The notes beneath the pieces are model-generated. The model was not told the DNA's origin. It ran no database searches and saw only the letters and a program-made list of their open reading frames with translations. Positions 1 to 8,962 of a stretch of DNA of 60,207 nucleotides are shown here, piece after piece (position 1 is the stretch's first letter; each line of letters opens with the position of its first letter). Origin of the DNA: Bdellovibrionales bacterium (GTDB lineage: Bacteria; Bdellovibrionota; Bdellovibrionia; Bdellovibrionales; UBA1609); the NCBI GenBank assembly GCA_028283955.1, contig JANQSP010000055.1:1-60207 (forward strand), in the 5' to 3' direction. Position numbers and translations under genes: made by a program.

Positions 1-1
1 A

Positions 2-2998
2 ACAATAGGGCAAGAGAAGCAACTTATTCCAAGAAGAGATACACAGCAGGTTATTGAATTAAATCCTGATAAAGAAGTTGTGAAAAAAATCTTGTCGGAC
101 AGTCAGGATATTACAAACAAATATGTTGATTCAAAATGGCTTCGGCTAACATCAGGTTTCCCATTGATGGCCAAACTGCTTAAAGATTTAGGTCCTATTA
201 AATTACTTAAAGGTGATATTTCTACAATTAGAAAAAAAATGCTTTGGGGAATGGGTCAACTGCACAAAGAGGAAAGAATTATAGGGGAAAAGGTCATAAA
301 AGCTTGTTCCTTATTTGATACAGTTTGTATTTCCGATGATGACTGGAGGAAGAAAGGATGGATCATATCTAGTACGACTGTTAATAGAGGAGTAGAAGAG
401 GCAAAATATATAGCCGAAAAAGTATGTAAAGTGGATTATGACCAATTCTGTGCTAAGGTACAATATTTTAGGGAGAGAAAAATTATCCAACAACATGGTA
501 GGTTTATACAGGTTCGTCCAAAGCCTTTAGCAGGTGGGTTGGCTGCTAAATTGATTCAAGAAACTCCTCCAGAATCCTTAATAAAATGGCTTACTGGTAT
601 GAACTCTTATCAAATAGAAGGTGAATATTCTGTTTTAAATGGCCTACGAGAATCTTTTTGTAAACAATTTTCTTATCTAAGTTTATCTTCAGAAGATCAA
701 GATTTAGGAGAACCACTCTGTGGAGCAGAAGGTTTTTTTGGAAAAGAGAAAATACTAACTACACAATGGGGCTCTGCTTGTTTTTATCACCTCGCAGAGG
801 CAAGTCCTAAAACGGCTTTAAAAACTCTGAAGAGACTCTTTGGAAATAAAACTGTAGAAGAATTATCTAATCTCAGGGAACCTAGAAGAAATTTAGTACA
901 AACTCTGCAAAAACTTGCTGTCAGAAAAGAATTGTATCCAAGCTCTGCCCGATTACTTTTAAAATTTGCAGAGGCAGAAAATGAATATCATAATGGTCAG
1001 CCTATAAGTAATAACTCTACCGGTATTTTTATACATCACTTTCAAATACTTTTATCTGGAACAGAAGCAGAACCTGATATGAAATTTAAGATCATTGATG
1101 AAATAGAACAATCTGGTTCTATAACACAAAAAGAAATAGCTATAAAAGCACTTAAAGAAGCTTTACCGAAGCAGAGTGCTACAGGTTTTTCTGATAGTGT
1201 AATGCAAACTACGAAAGGCGAGCGAATTCAGGATTGGAAACCTAAAACCTATGGAGAGTCCTGGGATTATTTCCGAAAAGCCCTTGAATATCTCGTTAAA
1301 TTCGCCACAAAAGATGAGAATAAGGAGATTCAAAATAATGCAAAAACAGTAATTGCGCAGAACCTAAGTTCTCTTCTTATAATAAACAATTTACATAATG
1401 ATATGGATAAAGCTGTTCAATCTGTTATTTCAGTTCATGGTACATATTGGCCTGAAGCCATCCGTAACTTAGGGTGGTTTATTAAATATAAATCAAAAAC
1501 AACAACAAAAGAAAATATAGAAAAAGCGAACGAAATGCTGAAAATATTACAACCAAAAAAAGAAGATATAAACAAGCGATTGAAGCTTTATGTGAAAGAA
1601 GACAGTGATTTATATGACCTGGACAAATCTAAGAATAAAAATATGCCAAATAGATATAACACGCAGTTTAAAAGTCTTATTGAAGATTTTAAAAATTATT
1701 TAGAAAATGTGGACGAAGATAAAATAGTTTCTATCTTTCACCTTTTGTTTCATGGAAAACAGAGTAACACTATCCCCTTTGCAAGAGAAGTTTCTCAAAA
1801 ATTAGAGAATCCGGTGAAATTAGCTACTCTATTACTTGGTCTTATAAAAGAATGGAAAAAAAATGCAGATTTTAACCCTTCTTTTCTAAGTGGTTTTTTA
1901 GACGGGTTAAATAAAAATAATCCAGATACAATACAGAAGATTTTAGACAATATATCAAATGATAATCATTTAGCAGATTTAATTTTACCTGCTTACTGGA
2001 GCTTGAGACTACAGGACCAAGATATAAAAAGGCTAATAGAGGTTATAAATAATAAATCGGTGAAAATAAATGCCAGTGAGTTAAAGTATTTATCTACAGC
2101 GCAGAAATGCCAGTCTGTTAGTGTAGAAGTAATGGAAAAATTAATCAGTATTCTCACAGACAAAAATATAGAGTTCTCCTGGTCTGCTTTACATATATAC
2201 AGTTATTATATTGATTCTAAACCTGAAAAAAAAGAGGAGTTACTTCACACCCTCTACAGGTTACTGACAAGAAAAAAATTATTAACTCAGGATAAAAAAA
2301 GATATGATACTATGAATGGTCACTTTTACAAAAAAGCAGTAAGTGATGTTTTAGACTCTACTTATGGAAAACGATTTTCGGAGATTTTTACTTCTGAGGT
2401 TCTAAGTTCTAAATTATCTCTATTTGAGTTTCCAATTGACGACTACTATATAAAAGAGTGTTTTAAAAAAGTTATGGAAAAATATCCTGACACAGTTATA
2501 TCTGAAGTAATAAACTGTGATCCAAATAATTTTAATATGCAATGTATTTTTGAAAATATCCTTGGAAGTAAAAATTCTTTAGGTGGAGGAGGGGATATTT
2601 TTAATACAAATTCTTCGTGTATTTTAAATGAACAGCAGCTTAAAAAATGGTGTGAAAAAGCACCTGATAAAGTTCCTGCTTTTTTAGCTAGAAATATGGA
2701 TTTATTTTCGAAAGAGGAGAAACAATGGTCATGGTCTTCTTTTGCCTTATTTTTATTTGATAAATATGGAGATAGAGAAAATGTTACAAGAGCTATTACA
2801 ATGAATCTTAGTAGTTTCCAATGGGCTGGAGATATATTAAAATATTTCGAGCGAATAAAAACAGCAGTAGAAGGATTACAAAATCATAAACATAAAAATG
2901 TGCGTGAGTTTTGTGAAAAAGAAATTGAATTCTTAGAAGAAAGAATAAAGCAAGAAAAACGAATGCAAAAGGAGAGAGAAGAGTTTGGAGTATGGTGA
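2..2998 (+). CDS. Large STAND/NTPase-like protein, C-terminal part (GxP-like motif, winged-helix-like segment, long alpha-solenoid); 5' end lies outside the window
   Basis: The 80..2998 ORF is open to the left edge: frame 2 reads TIGQEKQLIPRRDTQQVIELNPDKEV before the GTG at 80, with no stop. The segment 'LRLTSGFPLMAKLL' resembles the GxP motif at the end of STAND ATPase domains, followed by helix-rich sequence. Confidence 0.6.
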   Translation, partial: TIGQEKQLIPRRDTQQVIELNPDKEVVKKILSDSQDITNKYVDSKWLRLTSGFPLMAKLLKDLGPIKLLKGDISTIRKKMLWGMGQLHKEERIIGEKVIKACSLFDTVCISDDDWRKKGWIISSTTVNRGVEEAKYIAEKVCKVDYDQFCAKVQYFRERKIIQQHGRFIQVRPKPLAGGLAAKLIQETPPESLIKWLTGMNSYQIEGEYSVLNGLRESFCKQFSYLSLSSEDQDLGEPLCGAEGFFGKEKILTTQWGSACFYHLAEASPKTALKTLKRLFGNKTVEELSNLREPRRNLVQTLQKLAVRKELYPSSARLLLKFAEAENEYHNGQPISNNSTGIFIHHFQILLSGTEAEPDMKFKIIDEIEQSGSITQKEIAIKALKEALPKQSATGFSDSVMQTTKGERIQDWKPKTYGESWDYFRKALEYLVKFATKDENKEIQNNAKTVIAQNLSSLLIINNLHNDMDKAVQSVISVHGTYWPEAIRNLGWFIKYKSKTTTKENIEKANEMLKILQPKKEDINKRLKLYVKEDSDLYDLDKSKNKNMPNRYNTQFKSLIEDFKNYLENVDEDKIVSIFHLLFHGKQSNTIPFAREVSQKLENPVKLATLLLGLIKEWKKNADFNPSFLSGFLDGLNKNNPDTIQKILDNISNDNHLADLILPAYWSLRLQDQDIKRLIEVINNKSVKINASELKYLSTAQKCQSVSVEVMEKLISILTDKNIEFSWSALHIYSYYIDSKPEKKEELLHTLYRLLTRKKLLTQDKKRYDTMNGHFYKKAVSDVLDSTYGKRFSEIFTSEVLSSKLSLFEFPIDDYYIKECFKKVMEKYPDTVISEVINCDPNNFNMQCIFENILGSKNSLGGGGDIFNTNSSCILNEQQLKKWCEKAPDKVPAFLARNMDLFSKEEKQWSWSSFALFLFDKYGDRENVTRAITMNLSSFQWAGDILKYFERIKTAVEGLQNHKHKNVREFCEKEIEFLEERIKQEKRMQKEREEFGVW

Positions 2999-3846
2999 AT
3001 AAAGTAACTAAATCAAAAATGAAAAAAATTTTTAAAAAGCATCCAATATTATCTACAATTTGTTGTTTTCTATCCCTTCTTTGCTTTGTCCATTTGCTCC
3101 CTCTGGAGCATGAGTTTATAACTGGTTTTAAAGTTAATTGGGATAATTATATTTCTTATTTATACAGCGTTATGTTGACAACCGATATTGCTTTGATTGT
3201 TTATTTATTCGTAGATACAGAAACAGATGACAAATTGAAAAAAATAAAGGATACCGAGAAGAATATACAAAAAAATACTGAACAAATAGGTGAAATAACT
3301 AAAATGGTGCAAAATGATGTTAATAAAATGGAAGAAAATGTTCAAAAAATATCAGAAATTCAGAATAAAATTGCTCTTGAAACAGAGAAAAATCGCCTTA
3401 TAAATTTTGCTCAGCATTCTTCCTTGCCTGAGGAAAATAAGCGTTTTTTTAGAAGTAATATAAAATCTATTTTTCATGAATCGAAATATAATTTCAGGCA
3501 AATAGACCAAGATAATAATACTTTAGATTATTTTACAATTATTTTCATAAGAAAAAATAACGGATTACCAAAAGTATTTTATCCATTTGGCAGAGTGCAT
3601 GAGTTTCCTTATTTTTGTGTACATGTGATTGACAAAAAACCTTCTTTGGAAAATGGAGACAGTGGAGTGCAGCTGGATTTACATTATTATTTAAGTTATG
3701 ATTTTTCTGATAAAACTTGGCGTATTGCTGAACAATACCCTATAGAAGGTTCCCATATGAATAAAAGTTTCAAAATTATTTTTTCTGGTACCAATTACAT
3801 TGGAAAAGGTGGTCCATCCGCAGAAGAATTTTGTAAAAACTGTTAA
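2992..3846 (+). CDS. Membrane protein with two N-terminal TM helices, a coiled coil and an uncharacterised C-terminal domain
   Basis: Start overlaps the upstream stop (ATGGTGA). Hydrophobic segments 'HPILSTICCFLSLLCFVHLL' and 'YISYLYSVMLTTDIALIVYLFV', then a Lys/Glu/Asn heptad-rich region and a soluble C-terminus. Confidence 0.75.
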   Translation: MVNKVTKSKMKKIFKKHPILSTICCFLSLLCFVHLLPLEHEFITGFKVNWDNYISYLYSVMLTTDIALIVYLFVDTETDDKLKKIKDTEKNIQKNTEQIGEITKMVQNDVNKMEENVQKISEIQNKIALETEKNRLINFAQHSSLPEENKRFFRSNIKSIFHESKYNFRQIDQDNNTLDYFTIIFIRKNNGLPKVFYPFGRVHEFPYFCVHVIDKKPSLENGDSGVQLDLHYYLSYDFSDKTWRIAEQYPIEGSHMNKSFKIIFSGTNYIGKGGPSAEEFCKNC

Positions 3847-4004
3847 AGTTTACTAGTTTCACTTAAGAGAAAAGTCTTTAACTTAATCCCTGAGCACTTA
3901 AGAAAACCAGCCTCACAGAAGAAAAAGCGAGAATGTTTCCAGCGGGAAGGGTGGACAGTGTGTAACAAGAAAGAGTTAAAAGTACACTCTAAAAAACAAA
4001 TAAA

Positions 4005-4025
4005 TGGCGGAGAGAGAGGGATTCG
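4005..4025 (-). repeat. tRNA-Ser 3'-end fragment (CGAATCCCTCTCTCTCCGCCA), att-like remnant
   Basis: Minus strand reads T-loop end CGAAT, T-stem CCCTC, acceptor TCTCTCC, discriminator G, CCA. It is complementary to the GGAGAGG acceptor 5' strand at 4245-4251. Homology to tRNA breaks inside the T loop. Confidence 0.6.
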
Positions 4026-4163
4026 CCTACTACGTTCGTTCGCATCACGCTCACTCACTGCGCAGGCCCCCCTCAGTCGCTCAGAAAATCATCCAGATTT
4101 TCTGCCCTGTATTGTCTGCTCCCATAAGGTCGCAGGCAACACAGGTCTCTCCTTTTACTTCTT

Positions 4164-4251
4164 TGGAGAGAGAGGGAAAACGAAGCCTCGAGACGGTTTC
4201 CCGCCTACACGCTTTCCAAGCGTGCGCCTTCAGCCACTCGGCCACCTCTCC
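4164..4251 (-). tRNA. tRNA-Ser(GGA)-like gene, possibly degenerate (aberrant T arm, no encoded CCA)
   Basis: GGAGAGG-TG-GCCGAGTGGCTGAAGGC-GCACGC-TTGGAAA-GCGTG, a paired long variable arm (AGGCGG GAAA CCGTCT) and acceptor TCTCTCC. The T arm is GAGGC-TTCGTTTT-CCCTC (8-nt loop, C:C mismatch, no A58), and the discriminator is A instead of G. Confidence 0.6.
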
Positions 4252-4266
4252 TTATTTTAAACTTTA

Positions 4267-4321
4267 TCCCGCCTACACGCTTTCCAATGCCTGCGGATTT
4301 CAGCCGCTCGGCCACCTCTCC
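4267..4321 (-). pseudogene. Truncated/chimeric tRNA-Ser 5' fragment
   Basis: Minus strand GGAGAGGTGGCCGAGCGGCTGAAATCCGCAGGCATTGGAAAGCGTGTAGGCGGGA shares the acceptor 5' strand, the D-arm start and the 21-nt TTGGAAAGCGTGTAGGCGGGA with 4164-4251. The anticodon stem cannot pair and there is no T arm. Confidence 0.65.
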
Positions 4322-4341
4322 TATATTTTCCTAGACACATT

Positions 4342-5865
4342 TTACTTTTTATAAAATTCCTGCATTTGTGACTTGAACATCTGTCGTGAATGCTTCCAGG
4401 TGTAAAACATATGTCCTCCATGAAACACCTTAAAGGAAATTTGCTGTTTTAATTCTTCCGGAAGATTCATAGACTGCACCACCCGCTCAGAAGAAAAATA
4501 AGGGGTCGCCAGATCAAATATCCCATGACAGATAAATACCTTCATCTTCGGATTCATGGACATAGCATAACGAAGATCATCCGTGGCCCCTATTTGCAAA
4601 TCGAAAAAATGATCCCGCTTATCCTGCTTCCAACTTTTATTCACCTCTATATTTATAAGACGATATTGCCTGTCACAATCCAATTCCAGATGCTCCCTCA
4701 ATAAAGTATTAATCCCATGACTGAAAGCATGTTCAGTACCGGATAAACCGGGGTCAGGTCCTTCAAATTCATTCCGATGGGGAAAAGGATCATAAGTGGT
4801 AATGGAAGTGTCATACATGCCACACCACTTTCTTTCATTCTGTAAGAGCAGACGGCAAAACTGCCAAATCTGAAGTCGGCCATTTCCCTTTCTCATCCTC
4901 TCAAAAGGCACGCCTATAAATTTCACCACCTTTTGTAAAATGGCTTTTCTTTTCTCCTCATCCATTCTTTCACCCTGGACGAGCAGACAGTTCATCTCAT
5001 TAAGTGCAAAGTCCTCCGCCTCCTTCAAGAAAGACCGTAAATCCGATCCCAAATTCATACCCTGTTCCCGACCGGCAAAATAAGGAGACTTTTGATGATG
5101 AACCGCTGAAGCCACCATGGTGGGAAAAGACTCAATCCAACCAAGAACATCGTAATCACTACCGGTAAAAGTATTGAGTTCCAGACAGGGGGAAATCAAT
5201 ATCACACCGGATAAACCCACTCCATAATCCTCCTGAAGTTTTCGCGAGAGCTTGGCTACACGAAAACCTCCGTAACTTTCTCCGGCAATAAACACAGAAG
5301 AAGACCAACGGCGGTACTTTGATAAAAATCTCCCTATAAATTCCCCTATTGTTTCCAGGTCTCGATTCATTTTGTAAAACTCCTGGCCGAACGCTTTCTC
5401 TTTTTTATCCTTCTCACCGGGAGGGGTTAAATCCACCTCTTCCAAAGAACGACTAAACCCTGTACCCACCGGGTCCACAAACACCAAATCAGTAAAATCA
5501 AGCCAGCTCTCTGTATTGTCTTTTAAATGGGCCGGAGGAGGTAAACACTCTCCTGTGTCACCAAAAGTGATTGTCTTTGGCCCCATTGTTCCTACATGTA
5601 AATAAGCGGAAGAAGCCCCAGGACCACCATTGAAAACAAAAGTGACAGGCCGGGAAGACCCCGTCTCCTTACAACAATAGTAGGTATAAAAAATGTCCGC
5701 TATAGGCTTTTCTTTTTTGCGGATAGGAAGCCACTGCGCTTCGACGGAACAATCGACACGCTTCCCTTCCAACTTCCAGGACCATATTTTTTTTTGTCCT
5801 TTAGGTGGCTGATAAACCTTTTCTTTGTTTTCAGACGACTCTTTCTTTTTTTCCTCTTTACTCAC
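4342..5865 (-). CDS. S10-family serine carboxypeptidase-like peptidase
   Basis: Motifs FNGGPGASSAYLHVGTMGP, DPVGTGFS, GESYGG and a C-terminal HGGHMFY histidine region. Confidence 0.9.
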   Translation of the reverse strand: MSKEEKKKESSENKEKVYQPPKGQKKIWSWKLEGKRVDCSVEAQWLPIRKKEKPIADIFYTYYCCKETGSSRPVTFVFNGGPGASSAYLHVGTMGPKTITFGDTGECLPPPAHLKDNTESWLDFTDLVFVDPVGTGFSRSLEEVDLTPPGEKDKKEKAFGQEFYKMNRDLETIGEFIGRFLSKYRRWSSSVFIAGESYGGFRVAKLSRKLQEDYGVGLSGVILISPCLELNTFTGSDYDVLGWIESFPTMVASAVHHQKSPYFAGREQGMNLGSDLRSFLKEAEDFALNEMNCLLVQGERMDEEKRKAILQKVVKFIGVPFERMRKGNGRLQIWQFCRLLLQNERKWCGMYDTSITTYDPFPHRNEFEGPDPGLSGTEHAFSHGINTLLREHLELDCDRQYRLINIEVNKSWKQDKRDHFFDLQIGATDDLRYAMSMNPKMKVFICHGIFDLATPYFSSERVVQSMNLPEELKQQISFKVFHGGHMFYTWKHSRQMFKSQMQEFYKK

Positions 5866-6000
5866 TTTTTATACCCTCATCTGTTAAACTTTTAAACAAT
5901 CCACAAAAACACTCTAACATATCTTTACTTGATAAAAATTTACTTATATACTGAATAACAAGCTTTATACTATATAATCCAAACACAGGAAAAACAAATC

Positions 6001-6618
6001 ATGAACACAAAAAATAATAAGGAAATAATTGAAGATCAGGTAAATATATGGAATCAGGCCGCCTCCTCCGCACTTGCAGACGGACAAATTGATCCGGAAG
6101 AAATGGAAAAACTGAGAAGCTCTCTTAAAAATCTTCCTTTTGAGCTAACAGCAAAAAACAAAAAGGAAATGACAGAAAGTCATTTGAATATGTGGAAGCT
6201 CGTGGCTTCGGCTGTCCATGCCGATGGACGGGTTGATCCGGAAGAAATACAAATGGTTAAAAAGTATATTGAAGAGCTGCATTTCGATGCCAGACAAAAA
6301 GAAATAATAAAAAATGAGCTTAGGTCCCCTACTCCCCCTGAACAAATTCTACCCAAAATCACCGACCCGGGAGACAGAAGCCAAAGTCTTTACTTCGTGA
6401 GACTTTTGTTATGGAAAGACAACAAGCTCACAGATACAGAACAGGCTTTTTTAAAAAAAGTCAGTGATTACTTAATGCAGTTTGCTGACATACAGGAGCT
6501 TAGTCACCAATTGGAACTATCAAAACAAAAAACATCAATGACAGAAGCACTTCTCTACTCTATGAAAAGCTCTGTAGTCCAGTTTTTAAAAAGATTTACG
6601 TTCTTTTTCAAAGAATAG
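6001..6618 (+). CDS. TerB-like domain protein with two tandem related repeats
   Basis: Repeats 'WNQAASSALADGQIDPEEMEKL' and 'WKLVASAVHADGRVDPEEIQMV' resemble TerB/DjlA-like helices (ADG.id..E). Confidence 0.6.
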   Translation: MNTKNNKEIIEDQVNIWNQAASSALADGQIDPEEMEKLRSSLKNLPFELTAKNKKEMTESHLNMWKLVASAVHADGRVDPEEIQMVKKYIEELHFDARQKEIIKNELRSPTPPEQILPKITDPGDRSQSLYFVRLLLWKDNKLTDTEQAFLKKVSDYLMQFADIQELSHQLELSKQKTSMTEALLYSMKSSVVQFLKRFTFFFKE

Positions 6619-6634
6619 GCCACTGTCACTCTTC

Positions 6635-7702
6635 TTACTGAGCCATTGCCTTTTCAGGCTTACTATTGTCTTTTAACATTTTAAATTGTTTACACTCCTC
6701 GGGAAAATGACTCTCTTTTTCCAATTTCCTTAAAAGACTGAAGGCCAACACCTTTCCAAATGAGGGTTTGCATATATCAAATACATAACCACCTGAGCCT
6801 TTTGCAAAACTTATAAGTTCAGTTGGTGACTGATCAACTATAGAAGTGGCATTTGAAAAGTCAACTAACAGATAGGAGGCCAACACAACCAAAGGATTCA
6901 TGGTAACAGCACCATACAAACCACCTGCTTTTCCTACATATTTTACACCATTAGAAATAAAACCACTGGACTGATCAACACAATCATCCCTTGTATTGGA
7001 ACCTGTCACAACCAGTCCTATAAAGTTATCCTCTGTATAATGTTCATAAACGGAAGCCAGAGCCCCTTGAGCATCAGTAATGTCACTGGAAAACATGCCA
7101 CTTGATTCATCTTTTGATGATATAACTATAACCGCAAATGCAGAACCCTCTCTTAAAAAAGACCCTTCCCTGCCTGCCTGCCTATGCATAAATGATTTTA
7201 CCGCACTAAGAGGTTTTATCGCTCCATCACTGCAATAGGGGGGAAAAGAACATCCTGATTTTAAGGAAACCGTATCGGAAAATACCTGTTCATAATTTGC
7301 AGTATCAGAAGTAATAAACTTTTGAGTGGAAATTTGTCCGGATACCTCTGTATTGACTAAAACTCCAAGCGAACTTTCCGAGCTTCCCTTCACACCAGGT
7401 ATAACCCCCACTTTCCAATCAACCGCTTCCACACACTTTAAAAATTGATTTAAATTGGATGTCACTCGGGAATTTAAATCCTGCCCATCTGAAGAATTAT
7501 CCAGGGTAATAAGAATATCCATCGATTTTTTTTCCAACCATCCTATATCACCATTTTGTCTACAGTCCCTGGTTCCATCTTCCACACAATTGTAGGAAGA
7601 CATATATAGCTCAGAACAGTTAAAAAAAAATATACAACCCGCTACAATGGCAAGTGTAGCAAGACGACTCTGTTTTGTAATTAGAAAATTATTCAGCCTC
7701 AT
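6635..7702 (-). CDS. Secreted protein/lipoprotein with VWA-like segment
   Basis: N-terminal hydrophobic segment with Cys (IFFFNCSEL). 'MDILITLDNSSDGQDLNSRV' resembles the DxSxS start of a VWA-like fold. Confidence 0.45.
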   Translation of the reverse strand: MRLNNFLITKQSRLATLAIVAGCIFFFNCSELYMSSYNCVEDGTRDCRQNGDIGWLEKKSMDILITLDNSSDGQDLNSRVTSNLNQFLKCVEAVDWKVGVIPGVKGSSESSLGVLVNTEVSGQISTQKFITSDTANYEQVFSDTVSLKSGCSFPPYCSDGAIKPLSAVKSFMHRQAGREGSFLREGSAFAVIVISSKDESSGMFSSDITDAQGALASVYEHYTEDNFIGLVVTGSNTRDDCVDQSSGFISNGVKYVGKAGGLYGAVTMNPLVVLASYLLVDFSNATSIVDQSPTELISFAKGSGGYVFDICKPSFGKVLAFSLLRKLEKESHFPEECKQFKMLKDNSKPEKAMAQ

Positions 7703-7792
7703 ACCTCTTTTATCTCGGAAAAAGAAGTATGAAAATTGAAATATTAGACTCCGGTATAGACTTTCATCCAGTTGTAAAACAATCTATCCAAA

Positions 7793-8962
7793 TTACATCC
7801 CCAACTGTATCTTATAAAGCCAACCGACATTAGAGATAAAGTACAGCTCCGCAGTTGCTTTTGACACGACAGGCGGGGCGGACATCCCGCTCCCAAAAGG
7901 AAAGGAATGCAGCTCTTCCCCGGTACTCTTGGAGATAAAACGCAAGGCACCCGTATACTCTCCATAAATTAAAATACCCTTATACAATACAGGAGAAGTA
8001 GCTATAGATTCAGGAACATCGTGACTCCAAATCTGTTTTCCTGACTTTTGATCCAAAGCCAATACCTGTCCATTATGAGTGGAATAAAAAAGCCGGGAAC
8101 CATCAAGAAGTAAATCCCCATACGATCCGACGTCGGTTTTCCATATCACTTTTCCGGTTTTTTTATTTAAACAATAAACCCCCGATTCCAAACTGGAGGA
8201 ATATAAACACGCTTTCCCTATAACCGGTGAGGAAAAAGCAGTGGTAAATCGATTACCCGAATTAGATAATGTATGCTTCCATTTCAAACGTCCTTTAAAA
8301 TTCAAAGCAATAAGAGATCCATCACTAACTTTAAAATATATAAGATCATCTCCAACAAGAGGAGCCGCCACACCTTCAACTGTAAATTCCGCCGGTTTTA
8401 TCTGGGTAGAATAAGTCCAGATATTTTCACCTGTTTTCACATTTAAACAATAAATTTTATCAGCGGAAGCAAAATATAAATTCAACCCCCTTAATACCGG
8501 CGCACTGATACCAGTCAGGCCGGTATAATACTTCCACAATACTTTGCCCGTTTTCAAATAAAGAGCATATATAAAACCATCAGATCCTCCAAAAAATACA
8601 AATTCACCTGAAACCAGGATATCCCCCGCAACACCTCCTTTAATCGAAAAAAACCACTTCCTCTTACCCTGTTCCGAAGTGTAAACACTGACCCCGTTCA
8701 CCTTATTTCCCTGAACCAGCAAACCTTTCCCGGTAAGCACAGGTTTTATAGACTGTAAAATAGAAGGACGAGTAAAATCTTTTGAAAAAGTTTCACGTAT
8801 CCAAACTTTTCTGGCTAAAACAGAAGGTGTTTTTCCCCTTATATAATGAGCCACTCCTCCTTTTGCTTTTTTATAATCCTGAAAGAATCGATTATCCGTC
8901 GGTTTCAGGTGCTGACAGGAAGTAAAAAACAAGAAAGCAAACAACAGATATATTATATACAT
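7793..8962 (-). CDS. bamB: PQQ-like beta-propeller lipoprotein, BamB-like outer-membrane assembly factor
   Basis: Repeated '..G.vyaLdqkTGk.iW' blades. Lipoprotein signal MYIIYLLFAFLFFTSCQ, so the start is probably at 8962 rather than the ORF-track 9010. Confidence 0.75.
   Translation of the reverse strand: MYIIYLLFAFLFFTSCQHLKPTDNRFFQDYKKAKGGVAHYIRGKTPSVLARKVWIRETFSKDFTRPSILQSIKPVLTGKGLLVQGNKVNGVSVYTSEQGKRKWFFSIKGGVAGDILVSGEFVFFGGSDGFIYALYLKTGKVLWKYYTGLTGISAPVLRGLNLYFASADKIYCLNVKTGENIWTYSTQIKPAEFTVEGVAAPLVGDDLIYFKVSDGSLIALNFKGRLKWKHTLSNSGNRFTTAFSSPVIGKACLYSSSLESGVYCLNKKTGKVIWKTDVGSYGDLLLDGSRLFYSTHNGQVLALDQKSGKQIWSHDVPESIATSPVLYKGILIYGEYTGALRFISKSTGEELHSFPFGSGMSAPPVVSKATAELYFISNVGWLYKIQLGM

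What the first reader, a model, noticed from the sequence alone, without database searches (positions are those of the whole stretch)
1..3846. Candidate undescribed two-gene system: STAND-like NTPase coupled to a 2-TM coiled-coil membrane protein
Seen: the large ORF is open at the left edge and its stop overlaps the next start by 7 nt (ATGGTGA). The region is visibly more AT-rich than the backbone and adjoins tRNA-Ser fragments. Known: STAND NTPases with C-terminal helical sensor domains (e.g. Avs and bNACHT families) are phage sensors paired or fused with effectors. Inference: gene 1 would be the sensor/oligomeriser and gene 2 a membrane-acting effector. No Walker A/B is visible because the N-terminus lies outside the window.
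Basis: partly seen in the sequence, partly recalled or inferred. Interest (0 to 1): 0.75.

Follow-up and report, generated by a model that had tools for sequence, protein, structure and literature searches.

The report
Antitoxin-fused NLR-like phage-defence candidate
The window begins inside a gene for a large immune-sensor-like ATPase (related to the anti-phage protein PD-lambda-4 and, more distantly, to plant NLR immune receptors), and complete copies in sister bacteria show that this sensor is fused at its front end to the antitoxin of a HipA-type kinase toxin encoded just upstream, which suggests a sensor that holds and releases a growth-stopping toxin; the neighbouring membrane-protein gene is not a conserved partner.

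Summary
Both genes exist as described. Gene 1 (window 2-2998, 998 aa, cut by the contig end) matches PADLOC PD-Lambda-4_A (E 1.6e-43). Gene 2 (2992-3846) is a 2-TM, coiled-coil protein overlapping it by 7 nt. The contig cannot be extended, and the genome holds neither the N-terminus nor a kinase. A sister species (78% identical) has the full 1531-aa protein: HipS-like domain, HTH, PD-(D/E)XK-like domain, NB-ARC-like STAND NTPase (Walker A/B), then a C-terminal region read as helical repeats. Directly upstream lies an overlapping HipT/HipA_C kinase gene. Kinase plus fused antitoxin-STAND protein recurs in three of three relatives with upstream sequence. Elsewhere in the phylum (374 genomes) the HipS-HTH part occurs only alone (about 220 aa); plasmid homologues of the STAND part show no HipS-HTH. 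So the sensor reading is supported, but the conserved partner is HipT, not gene 2: no convincing gene 2 homologue exists in the phylum, and two sister species have unrelated sequence there, although its start and first six codons are conserved. The C-terminal region diverges fastest and conflicts with genome-wide relationships, as expected of an exchanged phage sensor. Anti-phage function and toxin gating are inferred. Verdict: new variant of a known kind.

The parts
2..2998 (+). Gene 1: C-terminal 998 aa of a STAND NTPase of the PD-Lambda-4_A family; 5' end off the contig, inferred to hold a HipS-like domain, HTH, PD-(D/E)XK-like domain and Walker A/B, as in sister species
2..622 (+). C-terminal part of the NTPase module, after Walker B (aligns with residues 514-715 of the 1531-aa G002 homologue)
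632..2995 (+). Fast-diverging C-terminal region, read here as a helical-repeat sensor (G002 residues 744-1531); the repeat assignment is inferred and was not modelled
2992..2998 (+). Overlap ATGGTGA of gene 1 stop and gene 2 start; the same overlap and the next six or so codons occur in G001 and G002, where no 2-TM protein follows
2992..3846 (+). Gene 2: 284-aa 2-TM coiled-coil protein; accessory gene, not conserved with gene 1
3043..3207 (+). Two predicted membrane helices of gene 2 (residues 18-44 and 50-72)
3223..3417 (+). Predicted coiled-coil helix of gene 2 (residues 78-142)
4164..4251 (-). Intact tRNA-Ser (GGA) beside the locus
4267..4322 (-). Partial second copy of the tRNA-Ser 5' half

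Best explanation
Gene 1 is the sensor end of a candidate phage-defence protein in which the antitoxin of a HipT-type kinase (HipS-like domain plus HTH) is fused to a PD-Lambda-4-type sensor: PD-(D/E)XK-like domain, NB-ARC-like STAND NTPase and C-terminal region. Proposed mechanism: at rest the HipS domain binds and silences the HipT kinase made by the overlapping upstream gene, and the HTH represses the operon. A phage product bound by the C-terminal region lets the NTPase exchange nucleotide and oligomerise. This activates the nuclease-like domain and changes the antitoxin arm so that HipT becomes active, phosphorylates a translation factor (HipA and HipT are known to hit aminoacyl-tRNA synthetases) and stops growth before phages are released. 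Shown by sequence: the fusion, the operon order, intact kinase, nuclease-like and NTPase motifs, the PD-Lambda-4_A relation, and a fast-diverging, phylogenetically discordant C-terminal region. Inferred: that the window's copy has the same missing front half, that the C-terminal region is a phage sensor, the triggering, and both effector activities. Gene 2 is an accessory gene at a variable position.
For: PADLOC PD-Lambda-4_A E 1.6e-43 for the window fragment and 1.1e-65 for the full homologue. Complete 1531-aa homologue in G002, near-complete one in G037, and G001 in two contigs, each preceded by a HipA_C gene, overlapping in G002 and G001; Pfam Couple_hipA E 1.6e-9 and 4e-11, HTH_3 about 2e-5, HipA_C E 8.5e-20, all above Pfam's curated cut-offs. 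The kinase's best solved matches are entries annotated HipA_C domain-containing protein and Legionella HipT. Standalone kinase plus 209-218-aa HipS-HTH gene pairs were read at two loci (G247, G009), and similar standalone HipS-HTH frames occur in about 20 genomes of the phylum, the presumed toxin-antitoxin ancestor. In 18 homologues the motifs E..DGGxD..QxK, GxxGxGK[TS]R and hhhDxC are invariant or nearly so, and the profile's best solved matches are NRC3 and NRC1 NB-ARC (E 7e-6, 1e-5). G001 and G002 share 87% of the HipS-HTH part, 75-78% of the nuclease/NTPase part, and 48-50% beyond residue 900. G000 and G002 share exact DNA runs up to 145 nt in that region against 72-77% identity in the housekeeping gltX/relA region, while G001, closer to G000 in that housekeeping region (77-79%), is only about 50-75% identical there. 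The locus sits in a different place in G002.
Against: The window's own copy lacks the front half: neither the N-terminus nor a kinase was found in its MAG (91% complete). No known defence gene was recognised among the window ORFs read to the right of the locus, which look like ordinary cell functions; they were not scanned with PADLOC. The AlphaFold model of the fused N-terminus failed (mean pLDDT 43, two sequences), so the PD-(D/E)XK assignment rests on a motif pattern. No trigger, target or phenotype was tested. The fusion is known only from four MAGs of one bacterial family, in one of which (G030) the frame stops before the NTPase.
Confidence: 0.5

Rival explanations
1. The HipT/HipS-HTH arm is an addiction or guard module rather than the sensor's effector. 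The STAND protein defends by its nuclease-like domain alone; loss or phage shut-off of the fused protein frees HipT, which kills the cell and so keeps the gene from being lost or inhibited.
For: Unfused relatives are mostly annotated as single genes of about 1250-1290 aa with no hip gene annotated beside them, so the nuclease-STAND unit probably works alone. The HipS-HTH part is about as conserved as the kinase (87% and 86%), as expected of an independent TA pair.
Against: Fusion of the antitoxin to the sensor is not needed for addiction and ties antitoxin conformation to the NTPase; kinase and antitoxin remained adjacent in all three loci with upstream sequence.
Confidence: 0.25
2. One reading: gene 1 is the sensor and gene 2, the 2-TM coiled-coil protein, is its membrane-acting effector, translated by coupling.
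For: 7-nt overlap, same strand, shared low G+C, 2-TM coiled-coil architecture; the gene 2 start and first codons are conserved in three species, so a coupled downstream ORF may be ancestral and degraded elsewhere; a weak relative (23% identity over 249 residues) lies next to a retron-like reverse transcriptase.
Against: Only one of three loci has it; G001 and G002 have 19-aa and 9-aa ORFs followed by unrelated sequence. No convincing homologue in 374 genomes of the phylum, none in plasmids, none confirmed in viral contigs. The weak relative's similarity is largely membrane and coiled-coil sequence.
Confidence: 0.1
3. Housekeeping or regulatory STAND protein (transcription regulator or signalling ATPase), not a defence protein.
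For: It carries an HTH, and HipB-type HTH domains autoregulate; no defence island was seen around it.
Against: Patchy distribution (fusion in 4 of 374 genomes), different genomic position in sister species, identity patterns discordant with the genome, fast C-terminal divergence, PADLOC PD-Lambda-4_A match.
Confidence: 0.1

Closest known systems
PD-Lambda-4 (protein A), anti-phage system from the E. coli functional selection (Vassallo et al. 2022, PMC9519451; PADLOC models PDLC03989-03991)
   Same: Homologous over the C-terminal two thirds of the window fragment and of the full homologue; P-loop NTPase noted for PD-lambda-4 in PMC10952713.
   Different: Unfused relatives are mostly annotated as single genes of about 1250-1290 aa without a HipS-HTH arm, and one carries an alpha/beta-hydrolase in place of the nuclease-like domain. 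Here about 210 N-terminal residues of HipS-HTH are added and a HipT kinase gene is placed upstream. The E. coli reference protein itself was not compared directly, only through PADLOC's profiles.
HipBST toxin-antitoxin (HipT kinase neutralised by HipS; E. coli O127, Legionella; PMC6581861, PMC9325769, PMC10627512)
   Same: HipA_C kinase with the GNxDRHGRNLG and APMYDNPS motifs; HipS-like domain homologous to HipA N-subdomain 1 (Couple_hipA) and an HTH.
   Different: Gene order reversed (kinase first); HipS and HTH are one polypeptide and are fused to a nuclease-like/STAND protein. The organisations found in the passages of PMC8262856 read here (HipS, HipS-HIRAN, Stl-like and resolvase-like antitoxins) do not include this.
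Avs / bNACHT STAND defence proteins
   Same: STAND NTPase with an N-terminal effector domain and a C-terminal region expected to sense phage (from general knowledge).
   Different: No Avs or other STAND model in PADLOC-DB matched; only PD-Lambda-4_A, an RT family weakly, and Hip-type or HTH candidates did.
HipAD / DS-6 (HipA kinase anti-phage system, PMC13092281)
   Same: A HipA-family kinase whose predicted catalytic residue is needed for phage defence.
   Different: Partner protein has DUF3037/DUF1829; no STAND sensor is described.

Membership tests
PD-Lambda-4_A family (PADLOC) | Match to the family profile over most of its C-terminal part | tested here: met
   Window 1.6e-43 over profile 456-1280 of 1283; G002 1.1e-65
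PD-Lambda-4_A family (PADLOC) | Domain layout of the unfused relatives, without an N-terminal antitoxin | tested here: not met
   HipS-HTH of about 210 aa precedes the position where unfused relatives start
PD-Lambda-4_A family (PADLOC) | Protection against phage | not testable with these tools
   Needs plaque assays
STAND (NB-ARC-like) NTPase | Walker A GxxGxGK[TS] and Walker B hhhhD | tested here: met
   Present in G002, G037, G001 and 15 further homologues; off the contig for the window copy itself
STAND (NB-ARC-like) NTPase | Homology to known STAND domains | tested here: met
   Profile best hits NRC3 and NRC1 NB-ARC, E 7e-6 and 1e-5; Pfam NB-ARC 2e-4, below its curated cut-off
HipBST toxin-antitoxin | HipA_C kinase with catalytic motifs, next to a HipS-like domain and an HTH | tested here: met
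   for relatives; not observed for the window copy
HipBST toxin-antitoxin | Order B-S-T with separate HipB and HipS genes | tested here: not met
   Order is T, then fused S-B-STAND
HipBST toxin-antitoxin | Kinase toxicity neutralised by HipS | not testable with these tools
   Needs co-expression
PD-(D/E)XK nuclease | Conserved E..D..(E/Q)xK core | tested here: met
   E (at least 90%), DGGxD and QxK invariant in 18 homologues
PD-(D/E)XK nuclease | Nuclease fold | tested here: inconclusive
   AlphaFold model unusable, mean pLDDT 43; no Pfam or PDB nuclease match
Avs | Match to Avs models in PADLOC | tested here: not met
   No Avs hit at E up to 1 for the window and up to 0.1 for G002

The most novel reading that the evidence does not exclude
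A sensor-gated toxin-antitoxin system: an NLR-like phage sensor physically carries the antitoxin of a HipT kinase, so that recognising a phage directly switches a translation-stopping kinase on, with a nuclease as second effector. Such a joining of a HipBST-type module to a STAND sensor was not found in the papers or libraries searched.
Probability: 0.4. Interest if true: 0.8.

Novelty: new variant of a known kind. Interest (0 to 1): 0.6.

Why it matters
How toxin-antitoxin modules are triggered by phage is a long-standing question. A TA module whose antitoxin is one polypeptide with an NLR-like sensor would make that trigger explicit and testable, and would add a Hip-family protein kinase to the effectors attached to STAND sensors. 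It also shows a PD-Lambda-4-type C-terminal region being exchanged between related Bdellovibrionales species.

Tried and rejected
Search for the missing N-terminus and kinase in the same genome: none. Gene 2 as a conserved partner: rejected. Pfam and NCBIfam hits of gene 2 (VKGC lumenal domain, ZIP, FtsL and so on) are weak composition-type matches below every cut-off. AlphaFold of the fused N-terminus failed, so no fold search was run on it. AlphaFold of gene 2 resolves only the helices. Relatives in viral contigs or phages: none. The genome-contig scan found only the three relatives already known. Search of other phyla by whole genome was not possible. Literature searches for HipA with STAND or Avs found no description of the fusion.

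Full report
What is in the window. Base 1 of the window is the first base of contig C12 of a 1.35-Mb draft genome. Its nearest relatives are metagenome-assembled genomes titled Bdellovibrionales and Oligoflexia; the isolate names (RHO2, RHO3, IP30b) suggest sponge samples, which is an inference. Gene 1 is open at the left edge and ends at 2998; gene 2 (2992-3846) starts inside it, sharing ATGGTGA. G+C is 31% against 39% elsewhere. Gene 2 is a 2-TM protein with a long coiled-coil helix; its C-terminal half could not be modelled.

What gene 1 is. The 998-aa fragment matches PADLOC's PD-Lambda-4_A profile (E 1.6e-43). PD-lambda-4 is one of the experimentally selected E. coli anti-phage systems (PMC9519451) and was noted as having a P-loop NTPase (PMC10952713). 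A sister species, G002, holds the complete protein, 1531 aa, 78% identical over the shared part. Its layout from the N-terminus: HipS-like domain (Pfam Couple_hipA, E 1.6e-9), HTH_3 (2.3e-5), a domain with the E..DGGxD..QxK pattern of PD-(D/E)XK nucleases, a P-loop NTPase with Walker A GVSGVGKTR and Walker B ILIIDDC, and about 800 residues read here as helical repeats. A profile of 18 homologues finds NB-ARC domains of the plant NLRs NRC3 and NRC1 as best solved matches (E 7e-6 and 1e-5), so STAND is well supported. The nuclease assignment rests on the motif alone: the AlphaFold model failed and no library matched.

The conserved partner. Directly upstream of the fused protein in G002, G037 and G001, overlapping its start by 8 nt in G002 and G001, is a gene for a HipA_C kinase (E 8.5e-20 in G002) whose best solved matches include Legionella HipT and which keeps the motifs YILKVQ, GN(N/H)DRHGRNLG and APMYDNPS. 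Two loci elsewhere in the phylum were read as a kinase followed by a free HipS-HTH gene, and standalone HipS-HTH frames occur in about 20 genomes of the 374 searched. The fusion to the nuclease-STAND protein was found only in four genomes of one family, one of which (G030) stops before the NTPase. In plasmids, relatives of the nuclease-STAND unit begin where the fused part begins; none of the listed matches includes the HipS-HTH region, and the loci read have no annotated hip gene beside them. One, in Lelliottia, has an alpha/beta-hydrolase in place of the nuclease-like domain, so the sensor unit takes different effectors.

What can be said of the window's own copy. Its front half lies off the contig and neither it nor a kinase was found in the genome bin. 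That it has the same layout is inferred from 78% identity to G002 and from G001, G002 and G037 all having it. The assembly of G001 breaks within about 40 nt of the same place, which may reflect alternative continuations in the population; this is unexplained.

Gene 2. In G001 and G002 the gene 1 stop also overlaps an ATG, and the next six or so codons are alike (MVNKVTK, MVNKITI, MVSKITR); after that the three species have unrelated sequence. No convincing homologue was found in the phylum, plasmids or viral contigs. The best weak relative, 23% identical over 249 residues, lies beside an HTH gene and a retron-like reverse transcriptase (RT_VI model, E 2.7e-79). Gene 2 is therefore best seen as an accessory gene at a variable 3' position; whether it contributes is open.

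Signs of defence-type evolution. Between G001 and G002 identity falls from 87% in HipS-HTH through 75-78% in nuclease and NTPase to 48-50% beyond residue 900. G000 and G002 share exact DNA runs up to 145 nt in that C-terminal region, although the housekeeping gltX-relA region is only 72-77% identical; G001, nearer to G000 in that region (77-79%), is about 50-75% identical to it in the C-terminal part. The locus in G002 is elsewhere, and the place beside the window's peptidase gene is occupied in G002 by another gene with no tRNA-Ser. This speaks for horizontal exchange and against a housekeeping role.

Mechanism. Best supported: the fused protein is sensor, antitoxin and possibly nuclease in one; HipT is held by the HipS arm and freed when the sensor is triggered, giving growth arrest by phosphorylation of a translation component, as HipA and HipT do (PMC6581861, PMC8262856). 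The rival that HipT merely guards or addicts the cell to the sensor is not excluded. Triggering, kinase target and nuclease activity are all inferred.

Novelty. PD-Lambda-4-type proteins and HipBST modules are both known; no description of their fusion was found in the papers searched. New variant of a known kind.

Noticed in passing
L014 (G003:C26), 892-3285 (-): HTH gene, retron-type reverse transcriptase (PADLOC RT_VI, E 2.7e-79) and a 380-aa membrane/coiled-coil protein weakly like window gene 2: possibly a type VI-like retron with a membrane effector.
   Followed up: partly
L019 (Lelliottia plasmid), 3468-7595: PD-Lambda-4_A relative whose N-terminal effector is an alpha/beta-hydrolase (PADLOC DUF626_VIII, E 1.2e-20) instead of a nuclease-like domain.
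   Followed up: partly
L047 end (G001:C206), L008 start (G001:C81) and window base 1: Two assemblies break within about 40 nt of the same codons, just after Walker B.
   Followed up: partly
L050 (G009:C137), 3962-8611: Two Hip-type kinase/antitoxin pairs in one locus: kinase then HipS-HTH, and HipS-like then kinase.
   Followed up: no
L048 (G030:C245), 2936-4144 (-): HipS-HTH-nuclease-like frame of 402 aa that stops before the NTPase; truncated or shortened form of the fusion.
   Followed up: no
window 4164-4322: Intact tRNA-Ser(GGA) with a partial second 5' half about 70 bases away.
   Followed up: partly
L016, about 6890-6990 (-): Short tandem repeat (about 18 nt, GGTAGGGATGACGTCTT) downstream of the fused gene in G002.
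   Followed up: no
L080 and L082: Two plasmid relatives (Rhizobium gallicum, Burkholderia plantarii) have another long gene directly upstream of the PD-Lambda-4_A-like gene.
   Followed up: no
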